A stretch of DNA of 64,000 bases from Brucella grignonensis (GTDB lineage Bacteria; Pseudomonadota; Alphaproteobacteria; Rhizobiales; Rhizobiaceae), in NCBI RefSeq assembly GCF_002252505.1, contig NZ_NNRL01000163.1, positions 501,981 to 565,980 on the forward strand, in the 5' to 3' direction. Positions 3,183 to 60,898 of the stretch are shown in pieces. Position numbers and translations under genes: made by a program. Position 1 is the stretch's first letter, and each line of letters starts with the position of its first letter. Below the pieces are notes generated by a model. That model was given only the letters and a program-made list of their open reading frames with translations. It was not told where the DNA came from and searched no databases.

Positions 3183-3258
3183 CAACCAGGGTCGGGCAAG
3201 AGGAGTTGCCGGGCCGGAAGAATGATAGGGCCAAGAAGCCATAGGGGAGGAGTATGTA

Positions 3259-4593
3259 ATGAATCTATTACGTCCAACACGTCGTCAGTTTCTGGCGGGA
3301 ACAGCGGCCATCGCCGCCTCGGGTGTCACGGGCATCAGCCCATCTTTCGCGCAGTCGAGTGTCGACTGGAAGAAGTATGCTGGCACCACGCTTGAAGTAA
3401 ACCTCATCAAGAGCCCGCGCGGCGAAATCCTTCAGAAATATCAGAAGGAATTCGAAGAGCTCACCGGCATCAAGGTCAATTCCGAACAGATGCCGGAACA
3501 GCAGCAGCGCCAAAAGGCGGTGATCGAGCTGACGTCTGGCCGTCCGAGCTTCGATGTCATTCACATCAGCTATCACGTTCAGAAGCGTCAGTTTGAAAAG
3601 GGTGGCTGGCTTGCCGACCTCAACCCGTTTCTGAAAGACCCGACGCTGACCGATGCATCACTCACAGAAGATGATTTTGCAAGCGCCGGTCTGACCTTCG
3701 CGAAGGATGCCAATGGCCGCTTTGGCGCGCTGCCTTTCTCGGTTGATTACTGGATCATCTACTGGAACAAGGAACTCTTTGCCGCCAAGGGCATCGAATT
3801 CCCGAAGACTTTTGAAGAATTGGTTGCCGCTGCAGAAGCGCTGACCGACCCATCAACCAGAACCTATGGTTTTGTCGCACGCGGCATGAAGAATGCCAAT
3901 GCGCCGGTCTATACCAGCCTTCTGCTCGGCTATGGCAAGCAGTCGGTTGACGCAGACGGTAATCTGCAGACGGATTCGGCTGAAGGCATTGAAGCCGCCA
4001 AGCTCTATCAGCGCCTGATGACCAAATCGGCACCTCCCGGCGTTGCGGGCTTTAACTGGGCTGAATGCCAGTCGAACTTCCTGCAGGGCCGTGTCGGCAT
4101 GTGGCTCGACGGTATCGGCTTTGCGCCACCGCTCGAAGACCCGAACAAGTCGCGCGTTGTCGGTAAGGTTGGCTATGGCGTCATGCCAGCTGGCCCGAAT
4201 GCACAGGCAGCACCAACCACCGGCGACGGTATCGGCGTGACCGAAGCTTCCAAGAACAAGGAGGCTGCATATCTCTATTGCCAGTGGGCCATTTCCAAGG
4301 AAATGGGCGCTCGCCTGTTGCAGTCGGGATCGGGTGTTCCGTTCCGCAAGTCGGTCATCGATGATGAAGCCGTGCGCAAGGGCGTCACCATGCCAGCGGG
4401 CTGGGTGGAAGCTCTGTCAAAATCCGCACCAATCAGCCAGCTCTGCCTGCCGGTCATCGTACCTGTCACGGAGTTCCGCGACATCATCGGTGTCGGCCTC
4501 ACCAATCTGTTGAATGGTGCTGACGCAGAAACTGAAATGAAACGCGCGACGGAAGAATTCCGTCCGGTCCTCGCACGGAGCGAAGGAAAATGA
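3259..4593 (+). CDS. Sugar ABC transporter substrate-binding protein (Tat-exported)
   Basis: A 444-residue family-1 extracellular solute-binding protein (maltose-binding type). The N-terminus has the twin-arginine pattern TRRQFLAG followed by an Ala-rich hydrophobic stretch and an SFAQSS cleavage region, so export folded through Tat to the periplasm is likely. The body has the typical lobe features (FDVIHISYHVQ, YWIIYWNKELF, GRVGMWLDG, GDGIGVTEASKNKEAAYLYCQW). GGGGAGG at 3243-3249 precedes the ATG. It is the first gene of a four-gene importer and overlaps the first permease by 4 bp. By context it binds the sugar degraded by genes 1-2481; identity unknown. Confidence 0.9.
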   Translation: MNLLRPTRRQFLAGTAAIAASGVTGISPSFAQSSVDWKKYAGTTLEVNLIKSPRGEILQKYQKEFEELTGIKVNSEQMPEQQQRQKAVIELTSGRPSFDVIHISYHVQKRQFEKGGWLADLNPFLKDPTLTDASLTEDDFASAGLTFAKDANGRFGALPFSVDYWIIYWNKELFAAKGIEFPKTFEELVAAAEALTDPSTRTYGFVARGMKNANAPVYTSLLLGYGKQSVDADGNLQTDSAEGIEAAKLYQRLMTKSAPPGVAGFNWAECQSNFLQGRVGMWLDGIGFAPPLEDPNKSRVVGKVGYGVMPAGPNAQAAPTTGDGIGVTEASKNKEAAYLYCQWAISKEMGARLLQSGSGVPFRKSVIDDEAVRKGVTMPAGWVEALSKSAPISQLCLPVIVPVTEFRDIIGVGLTNLLNGADAETEMKRATEEFRPVLARSEGK

Positions 4594-36666: not shown

Positions 36667-36702
36667 TAAAAAACCGGCCTTGCGAAAACGCAAAAGGCCG
36701 GT
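36667..36702 (-). terminator. Attenuator terminator of the SAM-II riboswitch
   Basis: On the minus strand ACCGGCC-TTTTGCG, loop TTTT, CGCAA-GGCCGGT, then TTTTTTATT. It sits between the aptamer and metZ and provides the off state for premature termination. Confidence 0.85.
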
Positions 36703-36714
36703 AACGAACCGCGG

Positions 36715-36770
36715 CCTCATTTAGCGAATTCTTTAACGTGGCTGCAAGCCGGCCGGCCAAATCACCACGG
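36715..36770 (-). promoter_or_regulatory. SAM-II riboswitch upstream of metZ
   Basis: On the minus strand CGTGG (36769-36765) pairs with CCACG (36741-36737) as P1. Between them is TGATTTG then GCTTGCAG, and after P1 comes TTAAAGAATTCGCTAAATG. These match the SAM-II (metA element) pattern: the conserved GAUUU loop, GCUUGCA, and the A-rich tail with GCUAAA that forms the pseudoknot. SAM binding should favour the terminator downstream and lower metZ expression when S-adenosylmethionine is plentiful. Confidence 0.88.
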
Positions 36771-36972
36771 AACACTTTTTCCTTATGCCTCTTGAGCGGG
36801 GTCGTCAATGCTTGGAACATCAGTTTTCAGGAAAACGCCTGCCTGCCAAAGCTCTGATAGCTGTGATTCCTGCGGAAAACCCACAAACTGCGGGGTTTCA
36901 GGGTTGGCATTGGTGTCGGGAGCGGTCAATGGTCATAGACCAAAATTTAAGTAAGTCACGGAGTTCAGTGTT

Positions 36973-56067: not shown

Positions 56068-56364
56068 ACGTTAGGGAATCTTATCCTGTTAAACCAGACG
56101 AGTAGATTTAATTTAAACTGAAAGATTACAAGTTTTGAAGCGTTTTCTAGCCGATATGAAATCTGTTTTAACGATCACTTTTTCGCGCAAGACAACGAAC
56201 TGCGTTACCTATGTACTCTTTTAAGGTGGCGGGTTTGGCATTGCAGCCATGCAGTTTATGCACTTCTCAAAACGATTAAAAAGGCCGAAGCTTCGTATCG
56301 GGAGGAAGGTAAAAAGCACAGCGCATCCCGAAAAGAGGTGTGCGGCACATAAGGGGATACCACC
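56068..56364. other. 297-bp intergenic region with truncated repeat
   Basis: Holds the leader of the DUF1127 gene. A half copy of the element B left arm, AGCGCATCCCGAAAAG, is at 56320-56335. The first 150 bp is AT-rich. I see no RNA gene. AAGGGG (56351-56356) is the ribosome site of the next gene. Confidence 0.5.
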
Positions 56365-56514
56365 ATGAGCAACCTTCGTACCCAGTTTTCCCGTTGGATG
56401 CAGTATCGCGAAAACCTGCGCGAACTCAACGGTTGCAGCGACCGCGAGCTTTATGATCTCGGCCTGTCACGCACGGATATACGCCGTGTCGCACGTGAGG
56501 CAGCCTTCGCCTGA
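56365..56514 (+). CDS. DUF1127 small protein
   Basis: A 49-residue basic protein, MSNLRTQFSRWMQYRENLR then ELNGCSDRELYDLGLSRTDI, the DUF1127 signature (LxxLsDreLyDLGLsRxdI) seen in YjiS-like proteins. Arg-rich. AAGGGG precedes the ATG by 8 bases. In Rhodobacter a DUF1127 protein (CcaF1) is co-transcribed with CCUCCUCCC-motif small RNAs and binds RNA; one such small RNA is encoded 2.5 kb downstream here. The link is suggestive only. Confidence 0.88.
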   Translation: MSNLRTQFSRWMQYRENLRELNGCSDRELYDLGLSRTDIRRVAREAAFA

Positions 56515-57826: not shown

Positions 57827-58234
57827 ATGAATGCCCATAACCTGATGATCCGCTTTCGCTATGCGCTGCACCACAGCCGCTTGATGCAGATTGCGACGCT
57901 GGTCGGCTTCTGGTTGGCCGGAGAAGCTTTTGTTCGCTTGAGCGGTCTGCCGCTGCCGGGTGGCATTGTTGGTATGGCGCTGGTTCTGGCGTTGCTTCTG
58001 AGTGGCCGTGTAAGCCTGTTCAGCATGAAGCGCGGTGCTGAATGGTTTCTTGCTGAAATGCTGCTGTTCTTTGTGCCTGCAGTTCTGGCAGTTCTGGAAC
58101 ATCAGGAATTGCTCGGTATGCTGGGTGTGAAGATTATGGCGGTCATTCTGGTTGGTACTCTGACCGTTATGACTGTGACAGCACTGACTGTAGACTTCTG
58201 CTATCGCCTGAGCGCTCGCTATGCCACTAAGTAA
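57827..58234 (+). CDS. lrgA: LrgA/CidA family holin-like protein
   Basis: A 135-residue membrane protein with four predicted helices (MQIATLVGFWLAGEAFVRLSGLPLPGGIVGMALVLALLLSG; AEMLLFFVPAVLAVLEHQELLG). The pattern GLPLPGGIVGMALVLALL is the LrgA/CidA signature. Such proteins form holin-like or pyruvate/3HP-type exporters with LrgB. Divergent from a LysR gene and overlapping lrgB by 14 bp. Confidence 0.92.
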   Translation: MNAHNLMIRFRYALHHSRLMQIATLVGFWLAGEAFVRLSGLPLPGGIVGMALVLALLLSGRVSLFSMKRGAEWFLAEMLLFFVPAVLAVLEHQELLGMLGVKIMAVILVGTLTVMTVTALTVDFCYRLSARYATK

Positions 58235-58916
58235 CCCCTATGTGGCGACACTGTTCTGGTCGGCTGCCACGATCCTTCTCTATCTTGCTGCAAAGCGCGT
58301 TTATCGCCGCTTTCCCATGTGGTGGCTGACGCCGCTTGCGATCACACCACTGCTGCTGATGGCCTTGCTTATTGGCCTTAATGAAAACTACCGTGGCTAT
58401 TTCAGTGCAACGCATTGGCTGGTCGCACTGCTTGGCCCCGCGACGGTAGCCTTTGCCATCCCCATCTATCAGCAGCGCGCAACTATTCGTCGTTACTGGC
58501 CGGTTCTGCTGGTTGGTGTTGTGGTTGGCAGTTCTTCTGCGATGCTTTCGGCCTGGGGGCTTGCGCATCTTCTTGGATTGAATGACGCTATAAGCCTCAG
58601 CCTGATGCCGCGCTCCATGAGTACGCCTTTCGCCATGACGGTTTCCGGCGATATTGGTGGCACGCCCGATTTGACAGCCATCTTCGTCGTGCTGACCGGT
58701 GTATTCGGTGCAGCACTTGGTGAGGTAATGCTCAACTGGTTGCCGCTTCGCTCGGCTCTCGCACGCGGCGCGCTGTTCGGTATGGGTGCGCATGGAGCCG
58801 GTGTTGCCAAGGCTCATCAGATCGGCAGCGAGGAAGGATCGATTGCCGGTCTCGTCATGGTTCTGGTTGGTTTGGTCAATGTTTTGGCCGCACCGTTCAT
58901 TGCCCAGCTTCTCTGA
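58221..58916 (+). CDS. lrgB: LrgB/CidB family protein
   Basis: A 231-residue inner-membrane partner of LrgA with about six helices. Typical: FSATHWLVALLGPATVAFAIPIYQQ, LSLMPRSMSTPFAMTVSGDIGG and GALFGMGAHGAGVAKA. The start is an ATG at 58221 within the lrgA 3-prime end. The pair is thought to export small acids and to affect murein hydrolase activity. Expression is probably controlled by the adjacent LysR protein. Confidence 0.93.
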   Translation: MPLSNPYVATLFWSAATILLYLAAKRVYRRFPMWWLTPLAITPLLLMALLIGLNENYRGYFSATHWLVALLGPATVAFAIPIYQQRATIRRYWPVLLVGVVVGSSSAMLSAWGLAHLLGLNDAISLSLMPRSMSTPFAMTVSGDIGGTPDLTAIFVVLTGVFGAALGEVMLNWLPLRSALARGALFGMGAHGAGVAKAHQIGSEEGSIAGLVMVLVGLVNVLAAPFIAQLL

Positions 58917-59069
58917 TGCGCTGATTTTTCAGCATATTTTGTTCAACGTGCTTATAATATAAGCATATTATGCACGTCTGTGTTTCTGCAACAATCTTAA
59001 GCATCGGCGTATTTGCATAACTGATATGCGTTATTGACCGTTGTTGAATAATGAGGCTGCAGGTAATTA

Positions 59070-59186
59070 TTGGTCATCGGGTTCACTCCTCCTCCCAGAA
59101 CCCGATGCGGGATACGGCACTCCTCCTCCCAGCCGTATTCAAGATCAGGCCGCGCATCCTCCTCCCGCGCGGCCTTTTTCTTTTTC
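59070..59186 (+). ncRNA. Small RNA with three anti-Shine-Dalgarno hairpin loops (alpha-r14/NfeR1-like)
   Basis: Three hairpins in series. H1: CATCGGGTTC (59075-59084)/GAACCCGATG (59098-59107). H2: GGATACGGC (59110-59118)/GCCGTATTC (59132-59140, one G-U). H3: GGCCGCGC (59048+100 = 59148-59155)/GCGCGGCC (59167-59174) followed by TTTTTCTTTTTC, an intrinsic terminator. H1 and H2 have the same 13-base loop ACTCCTCCTCCCA; H3 has ATCCTCCTCCC. All three loops are complementary to Shine-Dalgarno sequences. This matches the rhizobial alpha-r14 family (NfeR1 of Sinorhizobium), which represses mRNAs by pairing to ribosome sites. The 5-prime end is approximate; no ORF covers it. Confidence 0.85.
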
Positions 59187-59347
59187 TACTCTTCCCGAAA
59201 ACACATGCTGATCTGTTAACAGTGCGTCGCCGCATAGCCCCCATGGGCATTCGAGCCAATGTGAACTATCTCTCGGGTAACTTCACATTTGCGGTGATTG
59301 TCTCTGTCTGAGAGACTTGCCGTTACGAAACGCGGGAGATTGCAATC

Positions 59348-60898
59348 ATGACCAGTGGCATCCATCACCTCACGCTGATTACGCGCAAGGTTCAGGCCAA
59401 TGTCGATTTCTATGCTGGCTTTCTTGGCTTGCGTATTGTCAAGCGGACAGGTGGTTTTGAAGATGCGGAGCAACTGCACCTGTTCTATGGCGACCGTTCT
59501 GGAACGCCGGGATCTCTGATCACTTTCCTCGTTTGGGAAGATGGTGCAAGGGGCCGTGTCGGTCATGGTCAGGTTAGCGAAATCGCTCTTGCGATCGACC
59601 GCACCTCGGTCGGCTTTTGGCTGGAGCGGGCATTGCGCTATCACGTGCAGTCTGAAGGTCCGGTGCAGGAGTTTGGTGAGCCGGTGCTTCGCTTGCGTGA
59701 TCCAGATGGCGTTATCGTCAAGCTGGTCGGCTGCGATCTTACTGCCAATGATGCATGGGTTTCAGACGATATTCCTGCGGAACATACTGTGCGTCGGATA
59801 CGCTCGGCGACCATTTTGTCTGAGGCACCAGAGCAGACTGTGGGCTTCATCGAACGTTATTTCGGTTTCCGCGCTCAGGCCAAGGAAGGCACAATAGATC
59901 GTCTGGTCTCTGATTCAGGCGATGTGATTGACGTTCGCGATGCAAGCGGCTTCTGGCCGGGTATTCCCGGAACAGGCATTGCTGACCACGTGGCATTTCG
60001 TGCGGCTGTAACGGATGATGTGACAAAGCTTGAGAAGGAGCTTTCAAAGCTTAACTCCAGTGAAGTCAACGTACATGACCGTAAATACTTCACGTCGCTC
60101 TATGTCCGTGAGCCGGGTGGAACCCTGTTTGAATTTGCCACCGATGCTCCCGGCTTTACCCTGGATGAACCAGTGGAATCGCTGGGTCGAGTTCTGTTCG
60201 TGCCACCGGGCAACGGGCAGCAGGCGGATGCGATCCGATCCCGTATGCCGCAATTTGGCTTGCCGGGTGAGGAAAGGGTGATCTATCGCGATTTGCCTTT
60301 TGTGCATCGTATCCATCAGCCGGAAAATCCGGATGGCAGTACGCTTGTTCTGCTGCATGGCACCGGCGGCAATGAAAACGACCTCATGCCGCTTGCTCGT
60401 CTGGCTGCACCGCGTGCAACGCTTCTGGGTGTTCGGGGGCGCAGCACGGAAGAGGGCATTCAGCGCTGGTTTCGCCGTTTCGATCTGAAACGGTTCGACC
60501 AGGAGGACATTCGGTCTGAGGCAGAGGCTTTCGAGGCTTTTGTCGAAGGTGCAATTGCTGCCTACGCTATTGATCCAGAACGGACTGCGTTCATTGGAAA
60601 CTCCAATGGCGCCAATCTGCTTGCGGCCTTTATGCGGCTTCATCCACATGTCGTGAGCAAAGCCGTGTTGTTGCGTGCGACGGACGTTTTGGAAGAGCAG
60701 CCGGTTGCTGACCTTTCTGATGCTGCCATCCTGTTGCTCAACGGGATTGGCGATCCGTTTGGCGATGCATCCGGCAAACTGGAACAAGTCTTGCGGGCGG
60801 ATGGTGCAGAACTTGATGTCCGCTCCGCCGAAGGTGGTCATGGACTGACGGACGAAGATGTCCGTTTGGCTGGCGAATGGTTACAGCAAAAGCTCTGA
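59348..60898 (+). CDS. Fused VOC ring-cleaving dioxygenase and esterase (MhqO-MhqD-like)
   Basis: A 516-residue protein with two parts. Residues 1-310 form four VOC modules of the MhqO type (GIHHLTLITRKVQANVDFYAGFLGLRIVKR; metal His near residue 7; GIADHVAFR; Glu in GTLFEFATDAPGF). Residues 320-516 form a phospholipase/carboxylesterase (MhqD type): LLHGTGGNENDLMP, nucleophile FIGNSNGANLL, Asp in GIGDPFGD, His in EGGHGLTDED. In Bacillus MhqO and MhqD are separate proteins of quinone/hydroquinone detoxification. GGGA precedes ATG 59348. It is convergent with a second MhqO-like gene. Confidence 0.9.
   Translation: MTSGIHHLTLITRKVQANVDFYAGFLGLRIVKRTGGFEDAEQLHLFYGDRSGTPGSLITFLVWEDGARGRVGHGQVSEIALAIDRTSVGFWLERALRYHVQSEGPVQEFGEPVLRLRDPDGVIVKLVGCDLTANDAWVSDDIPAEHTVRRIRSATILSEAPEQTVGFIERYFGFRAQAKEGTIDRLVSDSGDVIDVRDASGFWPGIPGTGIADHVAFRAAVTDDVTKLEKELSKLNSSEVNVHDRKYFTSLYVREPGGTLFEFATDAPGFTLDEPVESLGRVLFVPPGNGQQADAIRSRMPQFGLPGEERVIYRDLPFVHRIHQPENPDGSTLVLLHGTGGNENDLMPLARLAAPRATLLGVRGRSTEEGIQRWFRRFDLKRFDQEDIRSEAEAFEAFVEGAIAAYAIDPERTAFIGNSNGANLLAAFMRLHPHVVSKAVLLRATDVLEEQPVADLSDAAILLLNGIGDPFGDASGKLEQVLRADGAELDVRSAEGGHGLTDEDVRLAGEWLQQKL

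What the first reader, a model, noticed from the sequence alone, without database searches (positions are those of the whole stretch)
59070..59186. Small RNA with three tandem CCUCCUCC-loop hairpins
Three hairpins in a row each present the same anti-Shine-Dalgarno motif in the loop; two loops are identical over 13 bases although their stems differ. Only the last hairpin carries a terminator. The conserved loops with changing stems show selection on loop sequence. It resembles the alpha-r14/NfeR1 family and the Rhodobacter CcsR (cuckoo) RNAs. It could target any mRNA with a GGAGG site, including strong-SD genes here (argD, the 54-residue protein, the 61-residue protein).
Basis: partly seen in the sequence, partly recalled or inferred. 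Interest (0 to 1): 0.75.

Follow-up and report, generated by a model that had tools for sequence, protein, structure and literature searches.

The report
Known three-hairpin anti-ribosome-site small RNA
This is an ordinary member of a known family of bacterial small RNAs that stick to ribosome-binding sites of messenger RNAs, probably for nutrient uptake; less expected is that it and its sister copies in this genome all seem to sit under one and the same regulator.

Summary
In detail: three hairpins at 59075-59175 (+), each with CCTCCTCCC in the loop, only the last followed by a T-run. The element matches Rfam ar14 (RF02344, the NfeR1 family) over the full model, 84.3 bits against 58.8. The genome is a Brucella of the former Ochrobactrum group with five ar14 copies. 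This copy with its promoter region matches strongly in 34 of 35 genus genomes; loop cores are fixed while stems change and stay paired. Beyond the finding: a box fitting the published VtlR/LsrB motif lies 45 nt before the likely start, and 7 of the 29 such boxes in the genome lie before the five ar14 copies, an ar15 RNA and three short DUF1127 genes. Genes whose leaders carry GGGAGGAG are rich in solute-binding proteins, clearly in one genome, not significantly in the window's own. The ntrB target is not supported. No expression data.

The parts
59015..59029 (+). VtlR/LsrB-type binding box GCATAACTGATATGC
   Evidence: Fits published GCAT-N3-TG-N3-T (PMC7486931, passage) and CAATGCAGCCATGCA read on the other strand (PMC12595884, passage); nearly invariant in 30 aligned orthologues; position; such a box lies 39-44 nt before 14 of the 26 ar14 copies examined. 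Binding not tested
59040..59045 (+). possible -35 element (GTTGTT)
   Evidence: inference from conserved CCGTTG in the orthologue alignment; a sigma-70 consensus scan found nothing
59063..59068 (+). possible -10 element (GTAATT), 17 nt after the -35
   Evidence: inference from conserved TA; not found
59069..59180 (+). ar14 (NfeR1-type) small RNA; transcript probably about 59075 to 59185
   Evidence: Rfam RF02344, 84.3 bits, model 1-123 of 123; start and end of the transcript are inferred
59075..59107 (+). hairpin 1, loop 59085-59097 with CCTCCTCCC
   Evidence: stem change GGGTTC/GAACCC to GAGTTC/GAACTC in orthologues
59110..59140 (+). hairpin 2, loop 59119-59131 with CCTCCTCCC
59147..59175 (+). 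hairpin 3, loop 59156-59166 with CCTCCTCCC; stem of the terminator
   Evidence: identical in all 30 aligned orthologues
59176..59185 (+). T-run of the intrinsic terminator
   Evidence: sequence; the scan does not report it (it takes loops of 3-8 only)
56238..56252 (-). second VtlR/LsrB-type box in the window, upstream of a DUF1127 gene
56365..56514 (+). short DUF1127 gene (49 aa), likely in the same regulon
   Evidence: Pfam PF06568 50.2 bits against 23.3; genome search
3245..3261 (+). leader with GGGAGGAG before the start codon of a solute-binding protein gene (start 3259): best candidate target found in the window
   Evidence: SBP_bac_1; the 98% identical gene in G303 (L204) also has GGGAGGAG

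Best explanation
It is a stand-alone trans-acting small RNA of the ar14/NfeR1 family. Shown here: sequence, predicted structure, family match, conservation of loops and of the upstream box. Inferred: the LysR-type regulator VtlR (LsrB in rhizobia) binds the box at 59015-59029 and switches on transcription from about 59075; the roughly 110-nt RNA ends at the terminator of hairpin 3. Each of the three loops can pair with a GGAGG-type ribosome-binding site, so one RNA has three equivalent binding sites. Pairing blocks translation, most strongly where the leader carries the longer complement GGGAGGAG, which in this genus is often a gene for a periplasmic solute-binding protein. It would act together with four sister copies and an AbcR (ar15) RNA to tune nutrient uptake.
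For: RF02344 over the full model, 84.3 bits. Five copies over the cut-off in the genome; 35 of 35 genus genomes, own included, with a match over the cut-off; 103 of 297 genomes of the order, own included, with a match and 55 of 297 over the cut-off. The window copy with its promoter region matches strongly in 34 of 35 (the 35th, 72% complete, only weakly, at a sister copy). In 106 distinct three-loop copies stems keep 6.36, 6.76 and 6.95 of 7 pairs for hairpins 1-3, against 4.93, 5.05 and 5.44 when the 3' arm comes from another copy. A VtlR-type box within 600 nt upstream of 24 of 26 ar14 copies in six genomes, about 0.003 expected per copy. A LysR gene next to thioredoxin reductase (TIGR01292 over its cut-off), the published neighbour of vtlR, about 5.5 kb from the ar15 RNA (PMC12595884, passage). 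Mechanism and redundant loops shown for NfeR1 in S. meliloti (PMC10746234, sections 3 and 8). Solute-binding proteins in 4 of 20 and 12 of 23 GGGAGGAG genes against 2 of 24 and 2 of 23 genes with a control leader; Fisher p 0.0011 for 16 of 43 against 4 of 47.
Against: No RNA data. In the window's own genome the solute-binding enrichment is not significant (4 of 20 against 2 of 24, p 0.25), and the two genomes share some of these genes. The box pattern was first written down from copies in this genome and another genus, so its count there is partly circular; only the boxes before the two DUF1127-linked copies and the window's DUF1127 gene were found afterwards. The box is not strongly over-represented everywhere: 118 against 28 reversed-control hits in five other genomes, only 21 against 9 in G303, so most boxes may be chance. 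Two of 26 copies have no box, and 5 of 31 had no listed position and were not tested. The LysR protein reaches no NCBIfam cut-off and was not tested as VtlR beyond its neighbourhood. No sigma-70 consensus found. The NfeR1 target ntrB has no GGAGG leader here.
Confidence: 0.85

Rival explanations
1. The element is an ar14-type RNA but acts mainly as a sponge or general damper of strong ribosome-binding sites, or by binding a protein, without specific mRNA targets.
For: GGAGG-type sites are generic; three near-identical loops suit titration; five copies in the genome; target enrichment in the own genome alone is not significant.
Against: Leaders with the long complement are not a random set of genes in G303 (12 of 23 solute-binding, control 2 of 23); repression of ntrB by loop pairing is shown for NfeR1 (PMC10746234, section 8).
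Confidence: 0.1
2. The hairpins are only a terminator region, for example of lrgAB upstream, and not a separate RNA.
For: Third hairpin is an intrinsic terminator; lrgB ends 150 nt upstream.
Against: A terminator-like hairpin lies directly behind lrgB at 58920-58933; a conserved box lies between lrgB and the RNA; in distant genus members only about 58995-59187 is alike; the family is an independent transcript in S. meliloti (PMC10746234).
Confidence: 0.03
3. The region codes for a small protein (open frames of 56 and 86 codons cover it).
For: Mechanical open frames 59041-59211 and 59051-59311.
Against: Orthologues differ by single-base insertions and deletions within and between the hairpins, which shift these frames; changes follow stem pairing.
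Confidence: 0.01

Closest known systems
NfeR1 of Sinorhizobium meliloti, founder of the alpha-r14 family (PMC10746234)
   Same: Three hairpins with CCUCCUCCC loops and differing stems; LsrB-type box before the promoter; solute-binding protein mRNAs as likely targets. That paper also says that an earlier promoter alignment with Brucella homologues showed a conserved upstream 29-nt stretch
   Different: NtrC site not convincing (TGC-N11-GCA at 58949-58965, where relatives have a hairpin, and the pattern occurs 45 times in the window; the paper too found no NtrC signature in Brucella); ntrB leader lacks the complement
SmelA075/SmelA099 families (three or four aSD hairpins; PMC3927594, section 2.7 read)
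   Same: Same motif, hairpin number and multi-copy nature, described for Rhizobiales in 2011
   Different: No difference noticed for this copy; their models were not run
[quoted passage not shown] PMC8625941, passages)
   Same: Two sister copies here lie behind DUF1127 genes. aSD loops of the Rhodobacter RNA: from PMC3927594 under the name RS0680a; that this is CcsR is recalled
   Different: The window copy has no DUF1127 gene in front of it
AbcR1/AbcR2 (Rfam ar15)
   Same: VtlR/LsrB control and transporter targets in the literature (PMC8844928, PMC7486931, passages); the ar15 copy seen here has the same box
   Different: Another Rfam family, one such loop in the copy seen; bound by Hfq, NfeR1 not (PMC8844928, passage)

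Membership tests
ar14 (RF02344) / NfeR1 | Match to the covariance model above the gathering score | tested here: met
   84.3 bits against 58.8, model 1-123 of 123
ar14 (RF02344) / NfeR1 | Three hairpins each with CCUCCUCCC in the loop, stems variable, last one a terminator | tested here: met
ar14 (RF02344) / NfeR1 | Independent transcript of about 115-123 nt | not testable with these tools
   no expression data
NfeR1 (regulation) | LsrB-type box upstream of the promoter | tested here: met
   GCATAACTGATATGC 59015-59029; only the sequence was tested, not binding
NfeR1 (regulation) | NtrC site TGC-N11-GCA at about -116 to -101 | tested here: inconclusive
   One at 58949-58965, about -126 to -110, where relatives have a hairpin; a second at 58987; the pattern is common (45 in the window)
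NfeR1 (targets) | Pairing with the ntrB start region | tested here: not met
   ntrB leader in this genome has no GGAGG; -10.5 kcal/mol, between the 5% point (-12.5) and the median (-6.6) of random pieces; only one loop sequence was tried
CcsR (RNAs from a DUF1127 3' UTR) | Located directly behind a DUF1127 gene | tested here: not met
   lrgB lies in front; the nearest DUF1127 gene found is 2.5 kb away

The most novel reading that the evidence does not exclude
In this Brucella-group genome the core of the VtlR regulon is a set of anti-Shine-Dalgarno RNAs: every ar14 copy over the cut-off (three with a box directly in front, two as tails of DUF1127 transcripts) plus an ar15/AbcR RNA and three short DUF1127 genes are switched on together. 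If the same holds in classical Brucella, the VtlR-activated DUF1127 mRNAs reported there would carry or accompany such RNAs, which gene-based arrays and RNA-seq tables may not count, and this could help explain why adding back the three DUF1127 genes and AbcR2 did not restore the vtlR mutant (PMC12595884, passages). Classical Brucella genomes were not examined here.
Probability: 0.5. Interest if true: 0.55.

Novelty: new member of a known kind. Interest (0 to 1): 0.33.

Why it matters
By itself it adds one well-supported member to a family known since 2011. Its use lies in the wider pattern: one regulator box before all five ar14 copies of a genome ties NfeR1-type RNAs, CcsR-like DUF1127 transcripts and AbcR into one candidate circuit for nutrient uptake in plant symbionts and animal-associated relatives, and makes that checkable in existing RNA-seq data.

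Tried and rejected
NtrB as target: not supported in this genome. NtrC site: not convincing. Small protein: rejected. Plasmid records: no match to 58000-60500 (near records may be left out). L007 (18.6 bits, E 0.62) overlaps the end of an apparent coding sequence (by eye) and was dropped; L006 (24.5 bits) is ar15. One search used E up to 1, at which 3 of 14 control genomes also ring, none over the cut-off; at E 0.001 none of 14 does. The genome was not searched for further ar15 copies.

Genome-wide duplex prediction was not possible, so targets were sought by a leader motif. Both leader motifs exceed their reversed versions, GGGAGGAG 26 to 2 and 36 to 7, the control AAAGGAGA 35 to 3 and 43 to 4, so this alone shows only ribosome-binding sites. 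Of the hits, 25 of 26, 30 of 36, 30 of 35 and 30 of 43 were held as loci, in list order, not drawn at random; ORFs under 70 codons were dropped, leaving 20, 23, 24 and 23. The grouped Pfam tables show 25 of 38, 27, 37 and 37 families; the 16 solute-binding proteins were confirmed one by one. Of the 47 controls, 10 with a likely signal peptide were rescanned singly and none is a solute-binding protein; the others rest on the grouped tables. Box counting used 26 of 31 ar14 copies of six genomes, those with listed positions. The set was chosen by having the loop motif, so it tests the stems, not the loops. A pair count on the MAFFT alignment was not made, because gaps fall into the stems. Literature: searches listed no paper on this copy or on VtlR control of ar14 in Brucella; only passages or sections of ten papers were seen, and most subscription papers are not held.

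Full report
What is there. At 59069-59180 (+), between lrgB (58221-58916) and a gene for a glyoxalase-type domain joined to an MhqD-like hydrolase (59348-60898; the hydrolase part is below the family cut-offs), three hairpins follow one another, each with CCTCCTCCC in the loop; a T-run follows the third. None of 200 shuffles folds as well (z -3.42), and all three CCTCCTCC sites of the 64-kb window lie within these 78 bases.

What it is. Rfam's ar14 model (RF02344) matches over its full length with 84.3 bits, cut-off 58.8. The genome has five ar14 copies over the cut-off; a weaker sixth hit is an ar15 (AbcR) RNA. A 29-base piece of hairpin 3 finds 25 named contigs: 23 titled Brucella, Ochrobactrum or Falsochrobactrum and two titled Rhizobiales bacterium. 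The closest whole genome, G307 (94% over 58910-59360), has a first contig of the same length as the B. pituitosa record, so the window is from a Brucella of the former Ochrobactrum group. In a sample of the order 103 of 297 genomes have a match and 55 of 297 one over the cut-off; in the genus 35 of 35; own genome included in each.

Conservation. The window copy with its upstream region matches strongly in 34 of 35 genus genomes; G318, 72% complete, matches weakly at a sister copy. In the more distant members only about 58995-59187 is alike. In 30 aligned orthologues (those held as loci) the CCTCCTCCC cores do not change, though some have an extra base at the edge of loop 1 or 2; hairpin 3 is identical in all 30, hairpin 1 changes from GGGTTC/GAACCC to GAGTTC/GAACTC, and TTTGCATAACTG followed by ATGC upstream is nearly invariant. 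Over 106 distinct three-loop copies from several genera, native stem arms keep 6.36, 6.76 and 6.95 of 7 pairs for hairpins 1, 2 and 3, against 4.93, 5.05 and 5.44 when arms of different copies are combined.

Control. The upstream box GCATAACTGATATGC (59015-59029) fits the VtlR box GCAT-N3-TG-N3-T given for Brucella abortus and Agrobacterium (PMC7486931, passages) and CAATGCAGCCATGCA (PMC12595884, passages). NfeR1 is activated by the VtlR orthologue LsrB through a related box, and a conserved upstream stretch that includes Brucella homologues was already reported (PMC10746234; abstract, sections 3, 8, 13 and passages). GCATNNCTGNNNTGC occurs 29 times in the genome, its reversed control 4 times; in five other genomes 118 times against 28. 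Seven of the 29 lie before the five ar14 copies, the ar15 RNA and the DUF1127 gene in the window. In six genomes 24 of the 26 ar14 copies with listed positions (31 exist) have a box within 600 nt upstream, where 0.003 per copy is expected: 14 at 39-44 nt, 10 at 294-486 nt. In the window's genome the two copies of the second kind have a DUF1127 gene in between, like CcsR behind ccaF1 in Rhodobacter (PMC8625941, passages); in the other genomes this was not checked. Three of six DUF1127 genes in the genome have the box; three DUF1127 genes are the main VtlR targets reported in Brucella, and a fourth without the motif is not activated (PMC12595884, passages). A LysR gene next to thioredoxin reductase, as published for vtlR, lies about 5.5 kb from the ar15 RNA. 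I wrote the pattern after looking at three ar14 copies of this genome, the ar15 RNA and copies of another genus, so part of this count is circular; the boxes before the DUF1127 genes were found only afterwards.

Targets. Leaders with GGGAGGAG 3-10 nt before ATG: 26 in the own genome and 36 in G303. Among the ORFs of 70 codons or more that were held, solute-binding proteins are 4 of 20 and 12 of 23; for a control leader AAAGGAGA in the same genomes 2 of 24 and 2 of 23. The own genome alone is not significant (p 0.25); G303 is (p 0.0015), and so are both together (p 0.0011), though the two share some genes. NtrB, the S. meliloti target, has no such leader here.

Judgement. For ar14, both features that could be tested are met. 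Of the features particular to S. meliloti NfeR1, the LsrB-type box is met, the NtrC site is inconclusive and the ntrB target is not met. The repeated aSD loops with changing stems were described in 2011 (PMC3927594, section 2.7 read). The finding is right but ordinary. What goes beyond it is the shared regulator box before all five copies, for which my searches listed no report in Brucella; it rests on sequence alone.

Noticed in passing
window 56238-56514: A 49-aa DUF1127 gene (56365-56514, +) with a VtlR-type box upstream (56238-56252, -), 2.5 kb from the ar14 RNA; no CCTCCTCC hairpin follows it.
   Followed up: partly
window 36699-36778 (-): SAM_alpha riboswitch (RF00521), 81 bits.
   Followed up: no
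L004 (G000:C67:249133-249250, -): This ar14 copy has a further CCTCCTCCC hairpin just upstream of the Rfam match (by eye), so it may be a four-hairpin (SmelA099-type) RNA behind a DUF1127 gene.
   Followed up: no
G105, G136, G069, G265, G209, G229, G248: Two or three ar14 copies in a row within a few hundred bases in seven genomes of one genus of the family.
   Followed up: no
window 58949-58965: Perfect dyad TGCTTATA-A-TATAAGCA where more distant genus members have a G+C-rich inverted repeat (by eye); could be a worn hairpin or a protein site.
   Followed up: partly
L005 2336-2420 (+): Glycine riboswitch near another ar14 copy.
   Followed up: no
L173 and L202: DUF779 genes with GGGAGGAG leaders in both genomes searched; possible conserved target.
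   Followed up: no
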